Below are positions 8,772 to 56,931 of a stretch of DNA of 64,000 nucleotides, one piece after another (the stretch's first letter is position 1; each line of letters begins with the position of its first letter). Position numbers and translations under genes: made by a program. The notes beneath the pieces were generated by a model that ran no database searches, was not told where the DNA came from, and saw only the letters and a list, made by a program, of their open reading frames with translations. Source of the DNA: Candidatus Gastranaerophilales bacterium. GTDB taxonomy: Bacteria; Cyanobacteriota; Vampirovibrionia; Gastranaerophilales; Gastranaerophilaceae. The stretch covers positions 1-64,000 of the forward strand of contig CALUUH010000009.1 of assembly GCA_944323875.1 (NCBI GenBank). Direction: 5' to 3'.

Positions 8772-10100
8772 TTAGTTGGAAATACACACAGCGCGGCCGT
8801 CGCTGTAGGACTTGTAGCCCCAGTTATTGTCACTGCCGCCCGTGTTGGTAGTGCCGAAGCCCCGGCGGTACGCGTAGCCAGCATCGTACTCCTCACTGGA
8901 CCAGTAGCGGTAGCCATTGTATTTGATTGGAGGATTTTGGCTGTATTCGTCCTTTACTTTGAGGTTGTATTTGGTTTCATTTGCTCCTATTGTTACTGCG
9001 TTGCCTTCGCTATCCACATATAAATTGCTAGCTAATTGTGCTAATTGCGCTCTCGTTGGTAGGCTCATGTTCTTTTGATCACATGCTTTTTTAGCTCCAG
9101 CCCAATAATTATTTGCACAGTAGCCGTTGCTGTCTCCTGTCTGGTCGTATGCTTTATCTTCTTCTGTTCCGTCGAAACATGTATTTATTGCTGTTGGAGC
9201 GAACTCTGTTGACCAGCACATGTCACCAATCGGGTTATCGCAAGTAGAGAATGCTACGCCAGAGCTTAATTGAATATCTTTTCCTACTCTATTCGGTCCT
9301 TTCTTACCGTTAACGTCTACCATATAACCCATGCAAGATACCTGTGAACCTGTATCTTCAATCGGGTCAGCATACGGGCATTCCGGCTGGTATGCCATAA
9401 TAACCGTTGTTCCGTCAGCAACAACAAAACTCATTGTATTAGTGTTAGTTTGCCAGTCGCTTAGGCCCATGCTTGATGCTGAGGTTAAAGAATCTGTTTC
9501 GACTTCCAAAGGTTCTTCGTTGCTTCCTGTTGTAACGACTTTAGGAGAGTAACATTTATTAATATCTGTGTTGTCACAGGTTTTAATAACTTTCATATAT
9601 TGTTTGAAAGTATCCATAAAATCTTCTGTAGTATTGTGGCCTGTCATAACGCCGTCGGTGTTCATTCTGCGAACTGTTTCAGTGAGTTTCTTTTCCCAGA
9701 GATCTTTAGCCGTAGACCATGCTTTCTCGTTATGATTTTGAATGAGCCCCGGAAGTGTCAGGGCGGCCACTATTCCGATAACTGCGAGAGTGATTAATAC
9801 TTCAGCCAAAGTGAAAGCGGCGCGCATTCCTCGCCCCTTGCGGGAGAGGATAGTTGGACTTAACGAGCGTTTAGCGAGTTTAGTCCTAACTTGGTGAGGG
9901 GTCATATCCTCAAGACTTGCAGCATGGTTAGATCCTGAAACAAGTTCAGGATGACGTAAAGACTCATGTGCGTCTTTAGCGGTTTCCAAAGTGTAAGAGC
10001 GGGTTACGTCCGCACCCTCATCCGGCCTCCGGCCACCTTCTCCCAACGGGAGAAGGGAATGCAACTGTTGTTGCTCTTTTTTAACATTTGGTTCAATCAT
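8772..10100 (-). CDS. Type IV prepilin-like protein with a C-type-lectin-like, DGR-style variable C-terminus
   Basis: From an ATG at 10100, preceded by AAAGGAG, this gene encodes 442 residues. Residues 1-91 are an odd leader made of in-frame repeat sequence (LPLGEGGRRPDEG, HPELVSGS, LSRKGRG). Residues 92-120 are the prepilin signature (MRAA, then FTLAEVLITL and a hydrophobic helix), cleaved by a prepilin peptidase after Ala rather than the usual Gly. The ectodomain is Cys-rich and ends with a DUF1566/C-type-lectin-like segment containing YWSSEE and a final AVC. The last ~120 bp are GC-rich and AAC-derived in codon style. An alternative start at 9827 (351 residues, leader MRAA) also has an SD-like AAGGGG. 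The protein is probably a surface pseudopilin or adhesin. Confidence 0.8.
   Translation of the reverse strand: MIEPNVKKEQQQLHSLLPLGEGGRRPDEGADVTRSYTLETAKDAHESLRHPELVSGSNHAASLEDMTPHQVRTKLAKRSLSPTILSRKGRGMRAAFTLAEVLITLAVIGIVAALTLPGLIQNHNEKAWSTAKDLWEKKLTETVRRMNTDGVMTGHNTTEDFMDTFKQYMKVIKTCDNTDINKCYSPKVVTTGSNEEPLEVETDSLTSASSMGLSDWQTNTNTMSFVVADGTTVIMAYQPECPYADPIEDTGSQVSCMGYMVDVNGKKGPNRVGKDIQLSSGVAFSTCDNPIGDMCWSTEFAPTAINTCFDGTEEDKAYDQTGDSNGYCANNYWAGAKKACDQKNMSLPTRAQLAQLASNLYVDSEGNAVTIGANETKYNLKVKDEYSQNPPIKYNGYRYWSSEEYDAGYAYRRGFGTTNTGGSDNNWGYKSYSDGRAVCISN
8793..8915 (-). other. Candidate DGR variable region (VR) at the 3' end of the prepilin gene
   Basis: Between the codon before YRYWSS and the last Arg codon, 27 of 41 codons end in C, and 23 of 41 are TAC, GGC, CGC, AAC, GAC or AGC, all reachable from AAC by changing its two adenines. 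In 8791-8910, 77 of 120 bases are G or C, whereas surrounding coding DNA is visibly AT-rich. Fixed residues (YWSSE, A, F, W, AVC) alternate with variable ones, as in known C-type-lectin DGR targets. No reverse transcriptase or template repeat lies in the window, so they would have to be elsewhere. Confidence 0.6.
9829..9903. repeat. Repeat unit (CCCCTCACC ... CGCAAGGGGCGAGG type), in frame in the prepilin leader
   Basis: On the minus strand the unit opens with GACCCCTCACC, has an internal palindromic core of about 45 bases, and closes with CGCAAGGGGCGAGG immediately before the codon-92 ATG of the prepilin. A second copy in opposite orientation is at 45535-45603, with the same ends and a different core. 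The unit is read in frame as part of the prepilin leader and also supplies an SD-like AAGGGG six bases before the internal ATG. Confidence 0.75.
9931..9956. repeat. Palindromic CTGAA-ACAAG-TTCAG element with TGACG tail
   Basis: The sequence GATCCTGAAACAAGTTCAGG followed by ATGACG is a widespread bacterial palindromic element often translated as HPELVSGS. Here it is in frame inside the prepilin leader. Related copies are at 8665-8690 and 45430-45460. Confidence 0.75.
9991..10057. repeat. Composite short repeat (GTGTAAGAGC-GGAC type plus PLGEGGRRPDEG palindrome)
   Basis: This stretch joins a GTGTAAGAGCGGG...GTCCGC mini-hairpin to a GGCCTCCGGCC / TTCTCCCAACGGGAGAA double palindrome. Variants of the first part recur near 10327-10350, 45513-45537 and 45682-45711. 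It is translated in frame in the prepilin leader as LPLGEGGRRPDEG. Confidence 0.65.
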
Positions 10101-10204
10101 AATTTGTTCTCCTTTCAGTTTTCTTTTGTAATCTATTTTTCTTTTATTCATTTTTTTGCAGCACAAGTTCCACAAGTTATAAATAACTTGTGTTCTTCAT
10201 TTGA

Positions 10205-26207: not shown

Positions 26208-27662
26208 ATGAAAGTAGAAAAAGCAAATCTTAATCTTCAAGCAATGCCGGTACATAACAATAAAATACCGGTACAGAAAGGAAAATTATCCGGTTTATCC
26301 GACACAAGTTTTACCGGCAGATACACTTCTACTGATATTTATCAAGAGCTTATGCACTACATGCCGGGATCCGTTAAATTTATGATGAAGATCAAAGAAT
26401 GGACAGGTGAAGTTCAAAATATTGTTATTAATTCAGTCGGTACCGGATTAATTGCTCCGATATTCATCAAATATAATCCGTTATCCAAAACCGATGAAGA
26501 TACGAGAACATATTCAGCATGGAGACAACCTGTTTCTGCTGCACTTGCAATTTTAACTCAGGTAGGCGCAACTATTCCGTTTAACAATAAAGTAAACAAT
26601 ATGGCTCACCAAGGTAAATTGGGTCAGGATTACAACATGACTCCGTTTATGAACGACAAATATTTACAAAAACTTGTAAAACACCAGCATCCTGATTTTA
26701 CACCTGCTCAAATAGCTGAACGAGCCGCACAACTGAGAGATGAACAGTTTGATGAATTAATAAAAGACTTAAAAACCAAAAATACCGTAATGTTTATCGA
26801 AGACGGACAGCCTAACAAAGTTCCGATGAATCCTAAACGTTATCAGGAAACATTACTTAAAACAATAACGAATTTAATCAAAGAAGAAACTGCTGAAAAA
26901 AATAAAAGTAACGAAACAAAACGTGAATTCAGAATAAGAAGAAGTGAATATTACAGAACGCATCCTGAAAAAGCAAACGCGCATCTTGACTCTTTACTGG
27001 AAATTTTTAGTTCAGGAGATATTGAAAAAGTTAAAAAAGATCTTGCGACAAAAATCAGTCAGATGAAATCCCATAAAGAAGATAAAGAATTAATCCTCTT
27101 TACTAAAGAAATATTTAAACTGGGAAATAAATCTAATGATAACAAAACAATAAACAGTATGCGAGAAAAGGTTGAACGTGCCAAAGGCTATGTTCATGAC
27201 TACAGCGCAATGACAAGCAAAGAACAGGTTATTGAGCGTGTAAACCGCAGTATTGACGGCCGCGTAACCGATATTGATAAAGAACTTAAATTCTTTGATA
27301 AAGTCAAAGATGCAATATTGGAGAACAAAACTGTACACGAAATAGAAACAATGTTCAACGAAGAAATACTAACGAACAGACGACTTCAGGAAAAACCTGT
27401 AAAATTTGCAGAGCAGGTTGCTAAGCAATTAAAAAATCAAACAAAAAGCTGCATAAACGGATATAAACAGGTCGGCGGTATATTTGTTTCACTCGTTACC
27501 TTATTTATTTCTTGTCCGCTATTGAACTGGGTATATCCTAAATTTATGGCTGCAGTATTCCCTAATCTCTCAAACGGAAAACACGTCAAAGATACAACCA
27601 GCTTAATTCTGCAAGCAAGCAATCCGGCAGAATTTCAAAAGAAAGCTGAGGTGAAATCATGA
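26208..27662 (+). CDS. Large member of a coupled membrane-protein pair, unknown function
   Basis: The 484-residue protein is unrecognised by name. It opens with a polar leader containing SFTGRY (34-39), has two hydrophobic segments (about 71-90 and 108-125) around the motif KYNPLSKTDEDTRTYSAWRQP, a charged, helical, probably coiled middle (about 150-400), and a C-terminal helix pair (about 415-445, with FISCPLLNWVYPKFM). There is no signal peptide. Its stop overlaps the next ORF's start as ATGA, so the two products are probably partners. I believe similar proteins recur in Gastranaerophilales; that is recall, not a search. Confidence 0.7.
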   Translation: MKVEKANLNLQAMPVHNNKIPVQKGKLSGLSDTSFTGRYTSTDIYQELMHYMPGSVKFMMKIKEWTGEVQNIVINSVGTGLIAPIFIKYNPLSKTDEDTRTYSAWRQPVSAALAILTQVGATIPFNNKVNNMAHQGKLGQDYNMTPFMNDKYLQKLVKHQHPDFTPAQIAERAAQLRDEQFDELIKDLKTKNTVMFIEDGQPNKVPMNPKRYQETLLKTITNLIKEETAEKNKSNETKREFRIRRSEYYRTHPEKANAHLDSLLEIFSSGDIEKVKKDLATKISQMKSHKEDKELILFTKEIFKLGNKSNDNKTINSMREKVERAKGYVHDYSAMTSKEQVIERVNRSIDGRVTDIDKELKFFDKVKDAILENKTVHEIETMFNEEILTNRRLQEKPVKFAEQVAKQLKNQTKSCINGYKQVGGIFVSLVTLFISCPLLNWVYPKFMAAVFPNLSNGKHVKDTTSLILQASNPAEFQKKAEVKS

Positions 27663-28426
27663 TAAAAATTTCATCTATAACAAATGCTACAAAGCCATAT
27701 CTCAAGAAGTTTAACAATATCTGTGAAAAACCTTATAAAGCACTGGCTAATTTTAAAATCGGTAATCACAGACCAATGGATATCGTTAACGACAATTACA
27801 TTGCTGATAATACGAAATTCATTACCGGACTCGGAGTTGCATCCATCGTATTGAAAGACGGTGTCGGCTGCTATATGTATGTTACCCAGAGTTTGAATAA
27901 CAAAGAAATTCCGGAGGATAAACGTAAATTCGTTGCAGCCCTTGACCTTGCAAACGGCGGGTTAATGATATTATTACAACTGGCAATGTTCTTTACAATA
28001 TCTAATAAAAAAGTTCAGGAAAAGATGTTTAATACCTTCTTTGGCAAACACTTTGACAGAGCCGCATCAAAAGGATATCAGGCAATGCTTAAAAACAATG
28101 ATCTGCTCAAAGATATGAAAGGTTCTGACTTCCACCCTGTATTAAATCAGGCGAGAAAAGATGTAAAAGCAGCATTTGAAAACGTAACTTCTCTATTTGC
28201 AGCATCTGTTGTCGCAAAAAGAATGCTGGTACCGTTTATCGCAACTCCGCTGGCTGATAAAACAAAAGCCTGGATGAGCAGAAATGATAAACCGGTCGAA
28301 GTAAGCAAAGAAACACAAAACACTTACAATACTCAAAAAGCAGGTATTGACAACAAAGAATCTGAAAAGACACAGGATGTAAGTGAAAAAGGTAATCTTT
28401 TAGATAAATTTAAACCAAAACATTAA
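27659..28426 (+). CDS. Small member of a coupled membrane-protein pair, unknown function
   Basis: This 255-residue protein follows the previous gene with a 4-base overlap (ATGA). It has hydrophobic segments near 54-75 (FITGLGVASIVLKDGVGCYM), 92-112 and 175-195, separated by basic linkers, and a polar Lys/Thr/Asn-rich tail from about 210 that looks disordered. No domain is recognised. The topology mirrors that of its larger neighbour, suggesting a membrane complex. Confidence 0.7.
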   Translation: MIKISSITNATKPYLKKFNNICEKPYKALANFKIGNHRPMDIVNDNYIADNTKFITGLGVASIVLKDGVGCYMYVTQSLNNKEIPEDKRKFVAALDLANGGLMILLQLAMFFTISNKKVQEKMFNTFFGKHFDRAASKGYQAMLKNNDLLKDMKGSDFHPVLNQARKDVKAAFENVTSLFAASVVAKRMLVPFIATPLADKTKAWMSRNDKPVEVSKETQNTYNTQKAGIDNKESEKTQDVSEKGNLLDKFKPKH

Positions 28427-28447
28427 AATAAATGACTTTGAAAATAT

Positions 28448-28493
28448 AAAAAAATCAGCAACGTAATTTTTATTTTTGCGTTGCCGATTTTTT
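28448..28493. terminator. Bidirectional terminator between convergent genes
   Basis: An inverted repeat with GCAACG / CGTTGC at its core, extended by A7 on one side and T6 on the other (one mismatch), lies between the genes ending at 28426 (+) and 28517 (-). It gives T runs in both directions. Confidence 0.75.
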
Positions 28494-28516
28494 ATATTTG
28501 TATATCTGTGTACCGG

Positions 28517-28834
28517 TTATTTTAGTGCATCTTTTTGAGTTTGCAGTCTGTTCATCTTTATTTCACGAATCATATTTTTGAGCTGCTCAATTCTGTATTC
28601 CAATCTATCGCTTTGCGTATATAAAATATCCAAAACATTGAAGGATAAATTCTTCTTCGTCTGTATATATTGATTTATTTTATAGTGTTCAAGTTCTATA
28701 CGATTAATATCTTCCTGCAAAGCGGCTATTTTTGTCTTATCTTCTTTTGTCAATTTCAAAAGCGGCCCTTTATATTTGTTTGCCGGTATCAGTGCTCCAA
28801 AACTCATGGTATAATTTGTATTAGTTATCAGCAT
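28517..28834 (-). CDS. Small coiled-coil protein with an N-terminal S-F-G-A motif
   Basis: The start at 28834 (105 residues) is chosen because AAAGGA lies six bases upstream; a longer frame has no site. Residues 10-14 read MSFGA, the same S-F-x-[G/A] pattern seen near the N-termini of the proteins at 26208 and 54082. Residues 30-100 are a charged, heptad-like helix rich in Lys, Glu, Ile and Leu. No function is recognised. Confidence 0.65.
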   Translation of the reverse strand: MLITNTNYTMSFGALIPANKYKGPLLKLTKEDKTKIAALQEDINRIELEHYKINQYIQTKKNLSFNVLDILYTQSDRLEYRIEQLKNMIREIKMNRLQTQKDALK

Positions 28835-42885: not shown

Positions 42886-43476
42886 TTATTTGATTTCATC
42901 ACGGGTAATGACTTTGTCAATCATACCGTATTCAAGCGCTTCTTGAGGTGTCATGATATAATCACGATCAGTATCTTTTTCGATTTTTTTCAAAGACTGA
43001 CCGGTATTAGAAGCAAGAATTTCATTCAATGCTTTTTTAATTCTGACAATTTCAGCCGCCTGAATTTCAATATCAGTAGCCTGACCTTGTGCACCGCCTA
43101 AAGGCTGGTGAATTAATACACGGGAATGCGGCAGCGCAAGACGCTTTCCTTTAGCACCTGAAGATAACAGGAATGCACCCATTGAAGCTGCTTGCCCCAG
43201 GCAGATTGTTGAAACATCTGCTCTGATATGCTGCATTGTATCATAGATTGCAAAACCTGCGGTTACACTTCCGCCAGGGCTGTTGATATACAACATAATA
43301 TCTTTTTCCGGATTTTCACTGTCCAACAATAACAATTGTGCGACAACCAGATTTGCCACCATGTCATCTATCGGTGTTCCGAGAAAAATAATTCTTTCTC
43401 TCAACAATCTTGAAAAGATATCAAATGATCTTTCTCCGCGACTGGATTGTTCAATTACCACAGGTACAAAACTCAT
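42886..43476 (-). CDS. clpP: ClpP protease subunit
   Basis: The 196-residue serine protease has a full catalytic triad: S98 in QAASMGA, H123 in VLIHQP and D172 in TDRDYIM. The processing-type N-terminus is short. It is the second gene of the tig-clpP-clpX run, so the barrel and its unfoldase are produced together. Confidence 0.97.
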
Positions 43477-45345: not shown

Positions 45346-45745
45346 TCCCGCAAGGCAACGACTATGGCAAGCCGCCGCGAAACTGTTGCGGGACGACGGA
45401 ACGGCGTTGGTAAGACGCATTTTAGCTTAGACTCTGAAACAATTTCAGGGTGACGGAAAGAGTTTGGCTAAAGATATAAAATCACAATGTCCTCCCCTTG
45501 CGACTCTCCCGAGGTGTAAGAGCAGACTTGTCTGCCCCTCACCCGAATTTCTAAGCTCACATTCGTTCGCTAACAAATTCGTCCTCTCACGCAAGGGGCG
45601 AGGAAATTCTAGCGATTGTTGTGCGCCTTGTTTCGACATCTTACTCACTTCACTCACTGTACTCACTTCACTCACCTTTGATGTGTATGAGCGGACTTGT
45701 ACGCCCAGCAAGGTGGCAACTGAGGCTAGATGCATTTAAAATCAA
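45344..45745. repeat. Repeat island part 2: same mosaic families as at 9.8-10.6 kb
   Basis: In order: CCCGCAAGGCAAC...TTGCGGGACGACGG (45344-45401), CTGAAACAATTTCAG element (45430-45460), GTGTAAGAGCAGACTTGTCTGC hairpin (45513-45537), the CCCCTCACC...CGCAAGGGGCGAGG unit (45535-45603), a CACTCACTT tandem array (45641-45676) and another GTGTATGAGCGGACTTG copy (45682-45711). An open frame at 45445-45735 on the minus strand is only translation of these units. Confidence 0.75.
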
Positions 45746-54081: not shown

Positions 54082-56931
54082 CTAGAACTTCAAGTCTGAG
54101 TCTTGTGCGACCCTGCGTTCAAAATCAACAACAAGCATTTCGGCCAATCTGTCTTTTCCATCATCGGAAACAGTGTCCTCCTGCATAAGTTTTATAAAAG
54201 CACTTCTATCCGCCAAATATTGGGTTAACCTTTCTTCCATTACACTATCTTTTGCATTAAGAGCACCCAGAATAAGTTTTTGCACCCGTTCAAAGTTTTC
54301 AGCATTGTCAATATTTTCATATTCAACGCCAGCCTCAAAAATATCCAACATCATAGGCCGGAAAGCAGAGTCATAAAATTCGTGAATTTCCTCTGACGAA
54401 AGCGGCTCTATATATTGCTCATATTTTTGCATAATAATATCTTTACTGTTAGAAACTTTTTTATCAAGATATTTGTTTTTTATAAATTTGGCTGTATCAA
54501 TCGGATTTTGCGCAAGGACTTCAGGATTACCGGTAATGTCATATAACACATAATTAAGCGCAGCATGGTTAGCATTTGCCATCAGCGGTTCTGCCTTTTC
54601 AAAACCCTTGTGCAGCATTAACTGCATAGTATTTTCTATTATACGGGCATTCTTTTGCTCTCTTGAATTTAAGTTTTTCAGTATTGGTCTGTATTTTTCA
54701 AAATTTATAGCAAAGAATATTTGAAGTGCTTCATTGGTTAAATAGTCTTGTTTAGGTACCAACTCCAAAAATTTCTTTTCTGCCTGCGGAACCCAATATT
54801 TTGTTTCGTTTTTATGCAGATACTGCTGCAAACCGCGTTTGAGAGAATACTCTGAGTTTAAATCTATATCATAGTTTTTATCCAGTTCGTTAAGCATTTC
54901 ATCCTGTGGCGCATCTGGCTTAGGACCGACTCTTTTTTCTTTCTTCGACAGCCAATTGATATAATCAACAATCAGATGTTCCATTATTACAACTTTTGCT
55001 ATTTTATCAGTTTTTGGATTATTGTAATACTTTATTACCGCATTATAATTTTTTAAAAATTCTTTATAAGCATCAGGCTTTTGATTTTCCAAATCTAAAG
55101 CATAGGCAGTTTGTTGCAATTCTAAACTCACCTCATGGTAATATTTAAACCCATTTTTTATATGCGAAATAAGCTCTGTATTAAAATCAGTTTTAGCAAA
55201 AGCATCCAATTCTTTGGATGGTGATGTTACTGCTAATTTTTTCATTTCAGCATTCAAACTGTTATGAAGTTCCAAAACTTTCTGCTCCAGCCCGCGCTCT
55301 TCTATGTAGTCCATTATATCTCCTCTTTCAAACATAAATATCTGAGGCTCACCGGTCAAGTTATACAGAAGTTTATTGAGGACAAAATCATTAGTTTTTG
55401 CTGTCAGTATATATGTACGGTTGAAACGATCATTTAACTCCTCTTTTGCGTCAGCCAGTTTATTTGCTATTGCATTAAATTCTTCATCATCAACATTGAG
55501 CAGTTTTTGTGGTTCAGGCTGACAAAAAGCAACTATTTCTTTTCTTGTCTGCTGGTTGGTGTTTCTCATTAAAAAGTCGATAAATGCCATTTTAAAGCTA
55601 TCAGTAAACAGTTTCATTGCATTCATCTCATACTTTCTAAACAGTTTATTAACTGTATTAGATGAATCAAGGTTTATAGATTTGTCATCGGATACTGGAG
55701 AAGTATTCTGTTGCGGAGGCTTTGTTGTTTGAGCGAGTTTCTGCATTTCACGTCTTACTCGTTGTTTTTCCTGTGCCTTGTTCAAAACTTTTGCTTTTAA
55801 ATCCAGAGCTTTATTCAACAATTGTTCAAGCTGTGTTTTGTCCTCGCTATAGTATGCGTTTTCAAACTCTGAAATAGTGTCTTGCAAGGCCTGTGAATAT
55901 TTTGTTCTAAATTCAGGGTCTTTATTCCAGAATTCCAGCATAATTTCTCTTTGCTGTTCTGAAAATGTAGGAAAATCCACTGCAAAATCTTCATCTGAAT
56001 ATTTTTCCGCAAAAATATCAGACAATTTTTCGCTGAACTCCATTTGTGCTGCGGCTATCGTCATAATCTGTCCCTGATATTTTGAAAATATTGAATCGGA
56101 CATTTCTTTGCCGTTAAGCATTTTTTGAATTTGTTCGCTGCGTTCTGTTTCATTTAAGCCGGCCCACCATTTAGTCATTGCAGAAGAAAGTTTTTCTCGA
56201 GTTTCTTCTGAAACCGTCACGCCGGATTTTCTGACAGGCGGAATATATTCTTTGTCGTTTCTGGTTGCCAGAAATGAATTATAATAAGGTAATTTCGGAT
56301 ATCTTATGCCCAGAGTATAAATATTTGAATGAGAAAAATACTTTTTATCTTTTACCCCCAGTTCGCGTTTAATTTCATCCGTTACATCATTATCAAAATC
56401 GTTATTAAGTTCCTCAATTGTTTTACCTTCAAGGTAGACTTTTTTCAAAAGATAAGTTGTTAAATCTTTATTATCTTTGTCTTTAAAAACAGGTGTTTGG
56501 GAAGTTTGAGCATCCCATTTTAAAAGTAACAAAATACCGGTATTAGGTTTTACATCTTTTAATTCTTTTAGGTTGGCGAACAAAGGTTCATCAGGATACA
56601 TGTCTTTAATATCCTGCACGCTGTCCGCAAGTTTCAAATATTCAAAGGCCTGTCTTTGAAGCTGTGCCGGCGGCATGTGCCGCCTTTGTTCAAAATCTTC
56701 GAACAAATACTTTTTAACAGTAACAGGCATGTTATCAATATTGAATTTTTGCGCATAAAAATCTTCCGGTGTTCTGTTAAGACGAGCCACAAAACTTATA
56801 TTATAATCCTTATATGCAAACAAAGGATGACTTGGCCGCTGCATAGAATTTGTTGAATAATCAGCCGTCTTAGCCTGATTTTGGTTATTTAATTTGCCGG
56901 TATATAAAGGATTTATTACTTGAACGCGCAT
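54082..56931 (-). CDS. 949-residue protein of unknown function with internal duplication
   Basis: No named family is recognised. The start (MRVQVINPLYTGK) leads to YNISFVARLNRTPEDFYAQ (43-61), with the S-F-x-[G/A] pattern seen in two other unnamed proteins. Residues 240-271 (SEETREKLSSAMTKWWAGL...) resemble a NUMOD3-like helical DNA-binding motif. A Gln/Thr/Pro linker lies near 395-425. Two copies of LNxxLYxxTGxP occur at 518-529 and 792-803, each followed by an acidic helical stretch with Asp and Ile at similar distances, so an ancient duplication is likely. It is mostly charged and helical, without signal peptide or membrane helix. Confidence 0.6.
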   Translation of the reverse strand: MRVQVINPLYTGKLNNQNQAKTADYSTNSMQRPSHPLFAYKDYNISFVARLNRTPEDFYAQKFNIDNMPVTVKKYLFEDFEQRRHMPPAQLQRQAFEYLKLADSVQDIKDMYPDEPLFANLKELKDVKPNTGILLLLKWDAQTSQTPVFKDKDNKDLTTYLLKKVYLEGKTIEELNNDFDNDVTDEIKRELGVKDKKYFSHSNIYTLGIRYPKLPYYNSFLATRNDKEYIPPVRKSGVTVSEETREKLSSAMTKWWAGLNETERSEQIQKMLNGKEMSDSIFSKYQGQIMTIAAAQMEFSEKLSDIFAEKYSDEDFAVDFPTFSEQQREIMLEFWNKDPEFRTKYSQALQDTISEFENAYYSEDKTQLEQLLNKALDLKAKVLNKAQEKQRVRREMQKLAQTTKPPQQNTSPVSDDKSINLDSSNTVNKLFRKYEMNAMKLFTDSFKMAFIDFLMRNTNQQTRKEIVAFCQPEPQKLLNVDDEEFNAIANKLADAKEELNDRFNRTYILTAKTNDFVLNKLLYNLTGEPQIFMFERGDIMDYIEERGLEQKVLELHNSLNAEMKKLAVTSPSKELDAFAKTDFNTELISHIKNGFKYYHEVSLELQQTAYALDLENQKPDAYKEFLKNYNAVIKYYNNPKTDKIAKVVIMEHLIVDYINWLSKKEKRVGPKPDAPQDEMLNELDKNYDIDLNSEYSLKRGLQQYLHKNETKYWVPQAEKKFLELVPKQDYLTNEALQIFFAINFEKYRPILKNLNSREQKNARIIENTMQLMLHKGFEKAEPLMANANHAALNYVLYDITGNPEVLAQNPIDTAKFIKNKYLDKKVSNSKDIIMQKYEQYIEPLSSEEIHEFYDSAFRPMMLDIFEAGVEYENIDNAENFERVQKLILGALNAKDSVMEERLTQYLADRSAFIKLMQEDTVSDDGKDRLAEMLVVDFERRVAQDSDLKF

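What the first reader, a model, noticed from the sequence alone, without database searches (positions are those of the whole stretch)
26208..28834. Recurrent N-terminal S-F-x-[G/A] motif in unrelated unnamed proteins
Three unnamed proteins have a short polar leader, no signal peptide, and then SFTG (34-37 of the 26208 protein), SFGA (11-14 of the 28834 protein) or SFVA (46-49 of the 54082 protein). The rest of each protein is unrelated. This may be a lineage-specific sorting or export tag, or an effector-like handle.
Basis: partly seen in the sequence, partly recalled or inferred. Interest (0 to 1): 0.55.

Follow-up and report, generated by a model that had tools for sequence, protein, structure and literature searches.

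The report
N-terminal FxG tag in Gastranaerophilales
Many otherwise unrelated, mostly unstudied proteins of these gut bacteria (non-photosynthetic relatives of cyanobacteria) begin with the same kind of short floppy tag ending in phenylalanine-x-glycine, which looks like an address label, perhaps for an export machine that the bacterial family keeps.

Summary
The three motifs lie where stated. S-F-x-[GA] alone is only weakly enriched at N-termini (1.6-fold). Better is a bipartite tag: M-x-[I/V]-x-x-[I/V/L]-[N/S], a polar, acid-poor, disordered leader, then x-F-x-[G/A]. In the 26208 family the leaders diverge, yet 62 of 74 keep F-x-[GA] (shuffled mean 18.6, maximum 31). In 1.26 Mb of the family, 42 of 1151 N-termini fit against 55 of 4731 internal-Met controls (P 6e-8); 34 of 825 against 34 of 3225 after removing paralogues. 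Six other families of the class show no excess. The lineage is Candidatus Gastranaerophilales. Tagged proteins are mostly orphans. All 20 genomes tested carry FlhA/SctV and FliP; 13 of 20 lack flagellin. Leader composition resembles published type III signals. I favour a lineage-specific export signal for that system (0.38). Against: some bearers also have Sec- or lipoprotein-like signal peptides, tagged genes do not cluster near export genes, the rule was tuned on seen data, and no secretion was shown. A docking tag for an unidentified hub is the main rival.

The parts
26208..27662 (+). Tagged orphan protein, 484 aa, mostly helical body; restricted to the family
26208..26318 (+). Its disordered leader (residues 1-37) including the closing motif
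26307..26318 (+). SFTG, residues 34-37
27659..28426 (+). Overlapping downstream gene (255 aa); its family carries the tag in 10 of 80 members under one rule, not in the window copy
28517..28834 (-). Tagged orphan protein, 105 aa, ATG at 28834
28793..28804 (-). SFGA, residues 11-14
54082..56931 (-). Tagged orphan protein, 949 aa; relatives in 23 of 60 family genomes
56785..56796 (-). SFVA, residues 46-49

Best explanation
The motif is the end of a bipartite, intrinsically disordered N-terminal sorting signal of the Gastranaerophilaceae: a start element M-x-[I/V]-x-x-[I/V/L]-[N/S/Q], a variable polar leader, and a closing x-F-x-[G/A] (in some orthologs S, N, E or K at the last place) just before the body of the protein. 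Shown: it exists, the Phe motif is kept while the leader around it diverges, and it recurs in unrelated lineage-specific proteins. Inferred: it is read by the flagellin-independent type III-type export apparatus found in this family (SctI, J, L, Q, R, S, T and V genes seen in the window's genome), which moves the tagged proteins to the envelope or out of the cell. The leader would work like a type III secretion signal with an added consensus anchor. A soluble FlhA_C-like protein seen in every family genome examined is a candidate adaptor (speculative).
For: Ortholog conservation: 62 of 74 leaders keep F-x-[GA]; 23 of 28 readable 54082-family members (by eye). Sample count: 42/1151 against 55/4731, P 6e-8; 34/825 against 34/3225 without paralogues. 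Leader disordered. Composition like type III signals: residues 2-25 L+E+D+A 12.8% in 42 curated tagged proteins against 26.9% in 1109 others (P 4e-17) and 26.2% in 633 polar-start others (P 2e-15); S+T+P 22.7% against 14.8% (P 2e-9); Ile at position 3 in 22 of 42 against 110 of 1109, matching the biases reported in PMC2669295 and PMC2668754 (passages). Export gate: FHIPEP in 20 of 20 and FliP in 20 of 20 family genomes while flagellin is in 7 of 20; SctV 90-94% identical among 19 of 19 family genomes. A FlhA_C-only protein in 19 of 19 lies beside a GH77 gene with a tag-like start in 10 of 12 family genomes.
Against: Five tagged proteins (L005) have a signal-peptide- or lipobox-like segment after the tag (by eye), which suggests Sec export. 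Tagged genes are not enriched near export-gate loci: 7 of 269 against 47 of 1151, P 0.29. The GH77 beside the FlhA_C protein has F-x-[R/E], so 0 of 11 fit F-x-[GA]. Families f3, f8 and f9 have a 59-66% SctV relative but no tag excess. In the soluble FlhA_C protein two of three recalled substrate-dimple residues are replaced (read by eye). FlhB/SctU, the ATPase and a secretin were not looked for with profiles. No secretion data.
Confidence: 0.38

Rival explanations
1. Docking short linear motif: the tag stays on the protein and binds a cytoplasmic or membrane hub of this family (scaffold, protease adaptor, or the soluble FlhA_C protein), so it localises or assembles proteins inside the cell and is not an export signal.
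For: One conserved Phe with a small residue two places on, at variable distance from the start, is typical of binding motifs; bearers include likely cytosolic enzymes (GH77, CheR-type methyltransferase) and, by eye, membrane proteins.
Against: Does not explain the type III-like composition of the whole leader. No hub identified.
Confidence: 0.32
2. Not a real signal: A+T-rich, polar starts plus chance matches, enhanced by a rule tuned on the data.
For: F-x-G is not among the 45 strongest N-terminal gapped tripeptides. First rule: 9 of 356 in the first relatives sample against shuffled mean 6.0. Second rule: 103 of 500 shuffles reach the count in that sample. With families counted once, one rule gave 30 families against shuffled mean 19.1 and maximum 30. 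A head-free test shows no excess in the own genome (P 0.38) and a false excess in f4+f6.
Against: 62 of 74 ortholog leaders, shuffled maximum 31; bipartite excess over internal-Met controls with and without paralogues; acidic depletion was not part of the selection.
Confidence: 0.12
3. Cleavable leader: a dedicated protease recognises the start element and cuts at or after F-x-[G/A], releasing the body (leader-peptide or pro-peptide logic), with or without transport.
For: The motif lies at the border of a disordered leader and the body, and leader sequence is free to drift.
Against: The residue after the motif varies widely. No candidate protease was sought.
Confidence: 0.1

Closest known systems
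Type III secretion N-terminal signals (injectisome effectors; flagellar late substrates)
   Same: Disordered, polar, Ser/Pro-rich, Leu/Glu/Asp/Ala-poor start with Ile favoured at position 3; an export gate is present
   Different: Has a recognisable closing Phe-x-Gly/Ala motif; some bearers also carry Sec- or lipoprotein-like signal peptides; no secretion shown
Signal peptides with a conserved extension (YSIRK-G/S in Gram-positives, ESPR of autotransporters; recalled, no call)
   Same: In the L005 proteins a conserved N-terminal element precedes a hydrophobic signal-peptide-like core
   Different: Most tagged proteins in the list have no such core (by eye)
Host-targeting motifs such as PEXEL or RxLR (recalled, no call)
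   Same: Short motif at variable distance near the N-terminus of unrelated lineage-specific proteins
   Different: Not downstream of a signal peptide; different residues; bacterial
FlhA/SctV cytoplasmic domain
   Same: The FlhA_C-only protein matches PF00771 (6.8e-46) and its model fits FlhA_C structures (3myd, Foldseek E 1.5e-20)
   Different: The match covers only the cytoplasmic part; it has its own N-terminal domain and coiled region

Membership tests
Type III secretion substrates | Type III-like N-terminal composition and disorder | tested here: met
   composition of 42 curated proteins; disorder, one protein only
Type III secretion substrates | No Sec or lipoprotein signal peptide | tested here: not met
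   five L005 proteins have such a segment (by eye, no predictor); most other bearers do not
Type III secretion substrates | Enrichment of substrates near the system's genes | tested here: not met
   7 of 269 near against 47 of 1151 elsewhere
Type III secretion substrates | Gate-dependent secretion in an assay | not testable with these tools
   no experiment possible
Non-flagellar type III system (injectisome) | Export gate present without flagellin | tested here: met
   FHIPEP and FliP in 20 of 20, flagellin in 7 of 20 genomes
Non-flagellar type III system (injectisome) | Components score above injectisome rather than flagellar models | tested here: not met
   SctV 597.5 of 692.25, SctR 196.1 of 208.6, FliP 229.9 above its 217.45 cut-off; most components below both kinds of cut-off
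Non-flagellar type III system (injectisome) | Secretin, needle, ATPase, FlhB/SctU | not tested

The most novel reading that the evidence does not exclude
A consensus-based type III export code: in Gastranaerophilaceae a bipartite MxI...FxG tag routes about 3% of the proteome to a flagellum-related, filament-less type III machine, with a soluble FlhA_C homologue as its reader; a related dialect (RFxG) may exist in family f3, which has a related gate.
Probability: 0.15. Interest if true: 0.88.

Novelty: new variant of a known kind. Interest (0 to 1): 0.62.

Why it matters
Type III signals are usually described as composition-based, so a conserved anchor residue would make signal recognition directly testable. 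It would also reinterpret genes that a 2014 survey called an incomplete flagellar set in most gut Melainabacteria then known (Soo et al., PMC4040986, passages) as a kept export machine, and would give a list of candidate exported proteins for a mostly uncultured animal-gut lineage. Even if the route is different, an address-like tag on dozens of unrelated proteins of one bacterial family is unusual.

Tried and rejected
Unbiased gapped-tripeptide scan of N-termini: F-x-G not in the top 45. First bipartite rule: own genome 18 of 410 (shuffled mean 5.7, maximum 15), first relatives sample 9 of 356 (shuffled mean 6.0, maximum 14; internal-Met 31 of 1435). Rule used on all loci: 88 of 2133 proteins, 30 families, shuffled families mean 19.1 and maximum 30. 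Next rule: own 2 of 500 shuffles reach the count, sample 1 103 of 500, sample 2 28 of 500, other families 298 of 500. Head-free polar-context test: own P 0.38, samples 1 and 2 P 5e-3 and 4e-4, f3 P 0.19, f4+f6 P 5e-3 from motifs mostly inside domains by eye, so not discriminating. Post hoc RF[QEA]G version in f3: 6/26040 N-terminal against 4/96729 internal, P 0.009, kept only as a lead. Contractile injection as general route: sheath family in 2 of 20 genomes, one over the cut-off. Fold search of the 26208 model: no match at E 0.001. Rfam on the window: none. misread minus-strand loci; redone. One search failed on a script error; redone, whose crude export-gate motif scan gave one FliP-like hit and was replaced by the profile search. 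Stretch L205 (the only f5 stretch) turned out to be all N, so the other-family sample is 19 readable stretches of six families.

Full report
WHERE. The window is G000:C9:1-64000 of a 1.94 Mb genome, 97.1% complete, 36.8% G+C in the window. Loci related to the 26208 protein in named genomes are mostly Candidatus Gastranaerophilales / Melainabacteria records, with others titled uncultured bacterium or, oddly, Fusobacterium, Brachyspira, Clostridiaceae or Heliobacteriaceae (80 loci kept of 123 confirmed). Below, f1 is the window's taxonomic family and f2-f9 are other families of the class, as the tool labels them.

OBSERVATION. The three proteins and motif positions are as described. The pattern S-F-x-[GA] by itself is weakly enriched at N-termini (own sample 22/20048 against 50/82686, P 0.017; f1 all 54/46200 against 132/185049, P 2e-3; other families 15/17136 against 56/72817, P 0.37).

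WHAT THE TAG IS. Listing N-termini showed a second element: the protein starts M-x-[I/V]-x-x-[I/V/L]-[N/S/Q] and the Phe motif closes a polar leader. Orthologs are the strongest evidence. Of 80 members of the 26208 family in the held loci, 74 could be anchored; their leaders differ in sequence and length, yet 62 have F-x-[GA] (shuffled leaders: mean 18.6, maximum 31 in 1000), and 61 of 74 have I/V at residue 2 or 3. By eye, the six that were not anchored also show F-x-[GA], and the 12 misses read F-x-[S/N]. These sequences are related and were not deduplicated. For the 54082 family 28 of 29 loci could be read: 23 have F-x-[GA] where the leader meets the conserved body, five have F-x-[E/K] (by eye; several are paralogues of one genome). 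For the 28834 family 6 of 10 readable members have it (by eye).

SAMPLE-WIDE COUNT. From 1.26 Mb of f1 (the window plus 60 stretches; 1151 called proteins of 75 aa or more), 42 fit the bipartite rule against 55 of 4731 internal-methionine starts (P 6e-8; given the start element P 4e-7). In the other families (336 proteins from 19 readable stretches of f2, f3, f4, f6, f8 and f9; the f5 stretch was masked) it is 5 against 11 of 1161 (P 0.28). With paralogues removed, f1 gives 34 of 825 against 34 of 3225 (P 4e-8). The rule was shaped on these samples; earlier rules were weaker and failed in the first relatives sample, and a family-level count under one rule was reached by shuffles (30 families, shuffled maximum 30). 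Some of the 42 are ordinary proteins by eye: in the own genome I judge 13 of 16 plausible in 456 kb, which would scale to some 55 per genome (inference).

WHAT CARRIES IT. Separately, I curated 43 bearers by eye (39 from the samples, the three window proteins, one GH77); this set overlaps the 42 rule hits but is not the same. Aligned, the 43 share one near-invariant column, the tag Phe, and the consensus M-x-I; they were chosen for the motif, so this illustrates and does not test. A length-matched random set of 43 shares nothing beyond M1. The tagged set hits six Pfam families, one member each: GH77, CheR, PGI, Methyltransf_31, HicA, DUF6805; the control hits 99 families. So the tag mostly sits on orphans. 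By eye, five L005 proteins have a signal-peptide- or lipobox-like segment after the tag, and several others have hydrophobic segments.

THE LEADER. In 42 of the 43 (one without a scorable match was dropped) the 693 leader residues are 17.0% Asn, 12.8% Ser, 12.1% Ile, with Glu 1.0%, Asp 2.3%, Leu 3.9% (the Phe was chosen by a simple rule and may be the wrong one in a few). In residues 2-25 of the 42 curated sample and window proteins, L+E+D+A is 12.8% against 26.9% in 1109 others and 26.2% in 633 polar-start others (P 4e-17, 2e-15); S+T+P 22.7% against 14.8% and 15.9%; Ile at position 3 in 22 of 42 against 110 of 1109. Position 3 is partly selected by the rule; acidic depletion is not. Arnold et al. 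report Ser, Thr and Pro enrichment and treat Leu, Glu, Asp and Ala as the depleted group in type III signals (PMC2669295, passages). Samudrala et al. name Ile at position 3 among shared features and few charged residues (PMC2668754, passages).

THE CANDIDATE MACHINE. In 20 f1 genomes FHIPEP (FlhA/SctV) is in 20 and FliP/SctR in 20. Flagellin is in 7, the same seven that have a second FliP and a higher-scoring FHIPEP. The lower-scoring full-length FHIPEP is in 19 of 20; G004 (75% complete) shows only the flagellar type and a partial match. So 13 of 20, the window's genome included, have a gate without flagellin, and flagellated genomes have a second gate. In the window's genome I saw FliE/SctI, FliF/SctJ, a 340-aa protein without family above cut-off, FliH/SctL and SctV (L232:13235-19206), and SctQ, FliO, SctR, SctS, SctT (L306:13612-17164). 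Most score below the cut-offs of both flagellar and injectisome models; FliP passes the flagellar one. SctV is 90-94% identical to the window's in the 18 other f1 genomes; f3, f8 and f9 have a 59-66% relative, f4, f5 and f6 42-48% (best full-length matches), f2 and f7 none. Soo et al. 2014 describe six of nine Gastranaerophilales genomes as having only a subset of flagellar genes and infer loss (PMC4040986, passages).

A LINK AND ITS LIMITS. All 19 f1 genomes also have a FlhA_C-only match of about 495 aa. In other families that call gave partial matches only; one of them (G090) lies in a 563-aa frame that I did not read, and one f3 genome has a 289-aa reading frame with a weak match beside its SctV, so restriction to f1 is likely but not proven. 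Full frames were recovered in 20 of 20 f1 regions chosen from such matches, and the model fits FlhA_C structures (3myd, E 1.5e-20). By match coordinates it lies beside a second GH77 (4-alpha-glucanotransferase) gene in 10 of the 12 f1 genomes (not in G009; on different contigs in G103). This GH77 starts like a tagged protein (M-[K/R/L]-[I/V], short leader, Phe) in 11 of 11 read, while the two housekeeping GH77 paralogues I read do not. But its motif is F-x-[R/E], so none of the 11 fits F-x-[GA]. Chlamydial MalQ carries a functional type III signal in a heterologous assay (PMC4829429, passages), an analogy only. Tagged genes are not enriched near the export loci (7 of 269 against 47 of 1151). 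A tagged 141-148 aa family lies near the SctT-SctQ genes in three of six genomes viewed (by eye).

JUDGEMENT. Existence of a lineage-specific N-terminal tag: about 0.85. Export signal for the type III-type machine: 0.38. Docking tag for another hub: 0.32. I do not file the proteins as type III substrates, because one defining feature (no Sec signal) fails for some bearers, gene clustering was not met, and the decisive assay is missing.

IN PRINT. In the held open-access library I searched Gastranaerophilales with N-terminal and motif (4 papers), with short linear motif (none), Melainabacteria with secretion system (2), with type III secretion and flagella (2), with effector and type III secretion (1), and with non-flagellar type III secretion or Cyanobacteria (10 listed of 329). 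No title or abstract start shown describes this tag. I saw passages of PMC3787301, PMC4040986 and PMC5877343 and listings of the rest. Subscription papers and preprints are not covered.

Noticed in passing
L234:11853-13328 (own contig C25); L315-L334: A soluble protein made of a small N-terminal domain, a coiled region and a FlhA-type cytoplasmic domain, in 19 of 19 family genomes, usually beside a second GH77 gene.
   Followed up: partly
L232:13235-19206 and L306:13612-17164 (own contigs C19 and C4): Genes of a type III-type export apparatus in a genome without a flagellin match; scores lie between flagellar and injectisome models.
   Followed up: partly
L313:740-4381 (f3 genome): Three reading frames near an f3 SctV gene begin with F-x-G motifs (FGG, FAG, FSG), two of them with a similar following stretch; and RF[QEA]G is N-terminally enriched in f3 post hoc. 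A possible dialect of the tag.
   Followed up: partly
window 8772-10175 and 45445-45735; L008:13500; L307:10418: Reading frames share low-complexity stretches such as VSEVSKMSKQGEQQSL and SLLPLGEGGRRPDEG near their starts: a dispersed DNA repeat read into proteins, it seems.
   Followed up: no
window 42886-43476 and G000:C8:9682-10257: The family genomes mostly have two ClpP paralogues, the second about 70-77% identical to the first.
   Followed up: no
L308:17954-18394, L309:9483-9908, L310:7753-8199: A small tagged family (141-148 aa, one hydrophobic segment by eye) close to the SctT-SctQ genes in three of six genomes viewed.
   Followed up: partly
L005:10482-13739: Three tandem tagged paralogues whose tag precedes a conserved signal-peptide-like segment (PLA...AMSP).
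   Followed up: no
window 26208-28426: The tagged 26208 gene and the overlapping 255-aa gene lie together, and both families had 80 members in the held loci.
   Followed up: no
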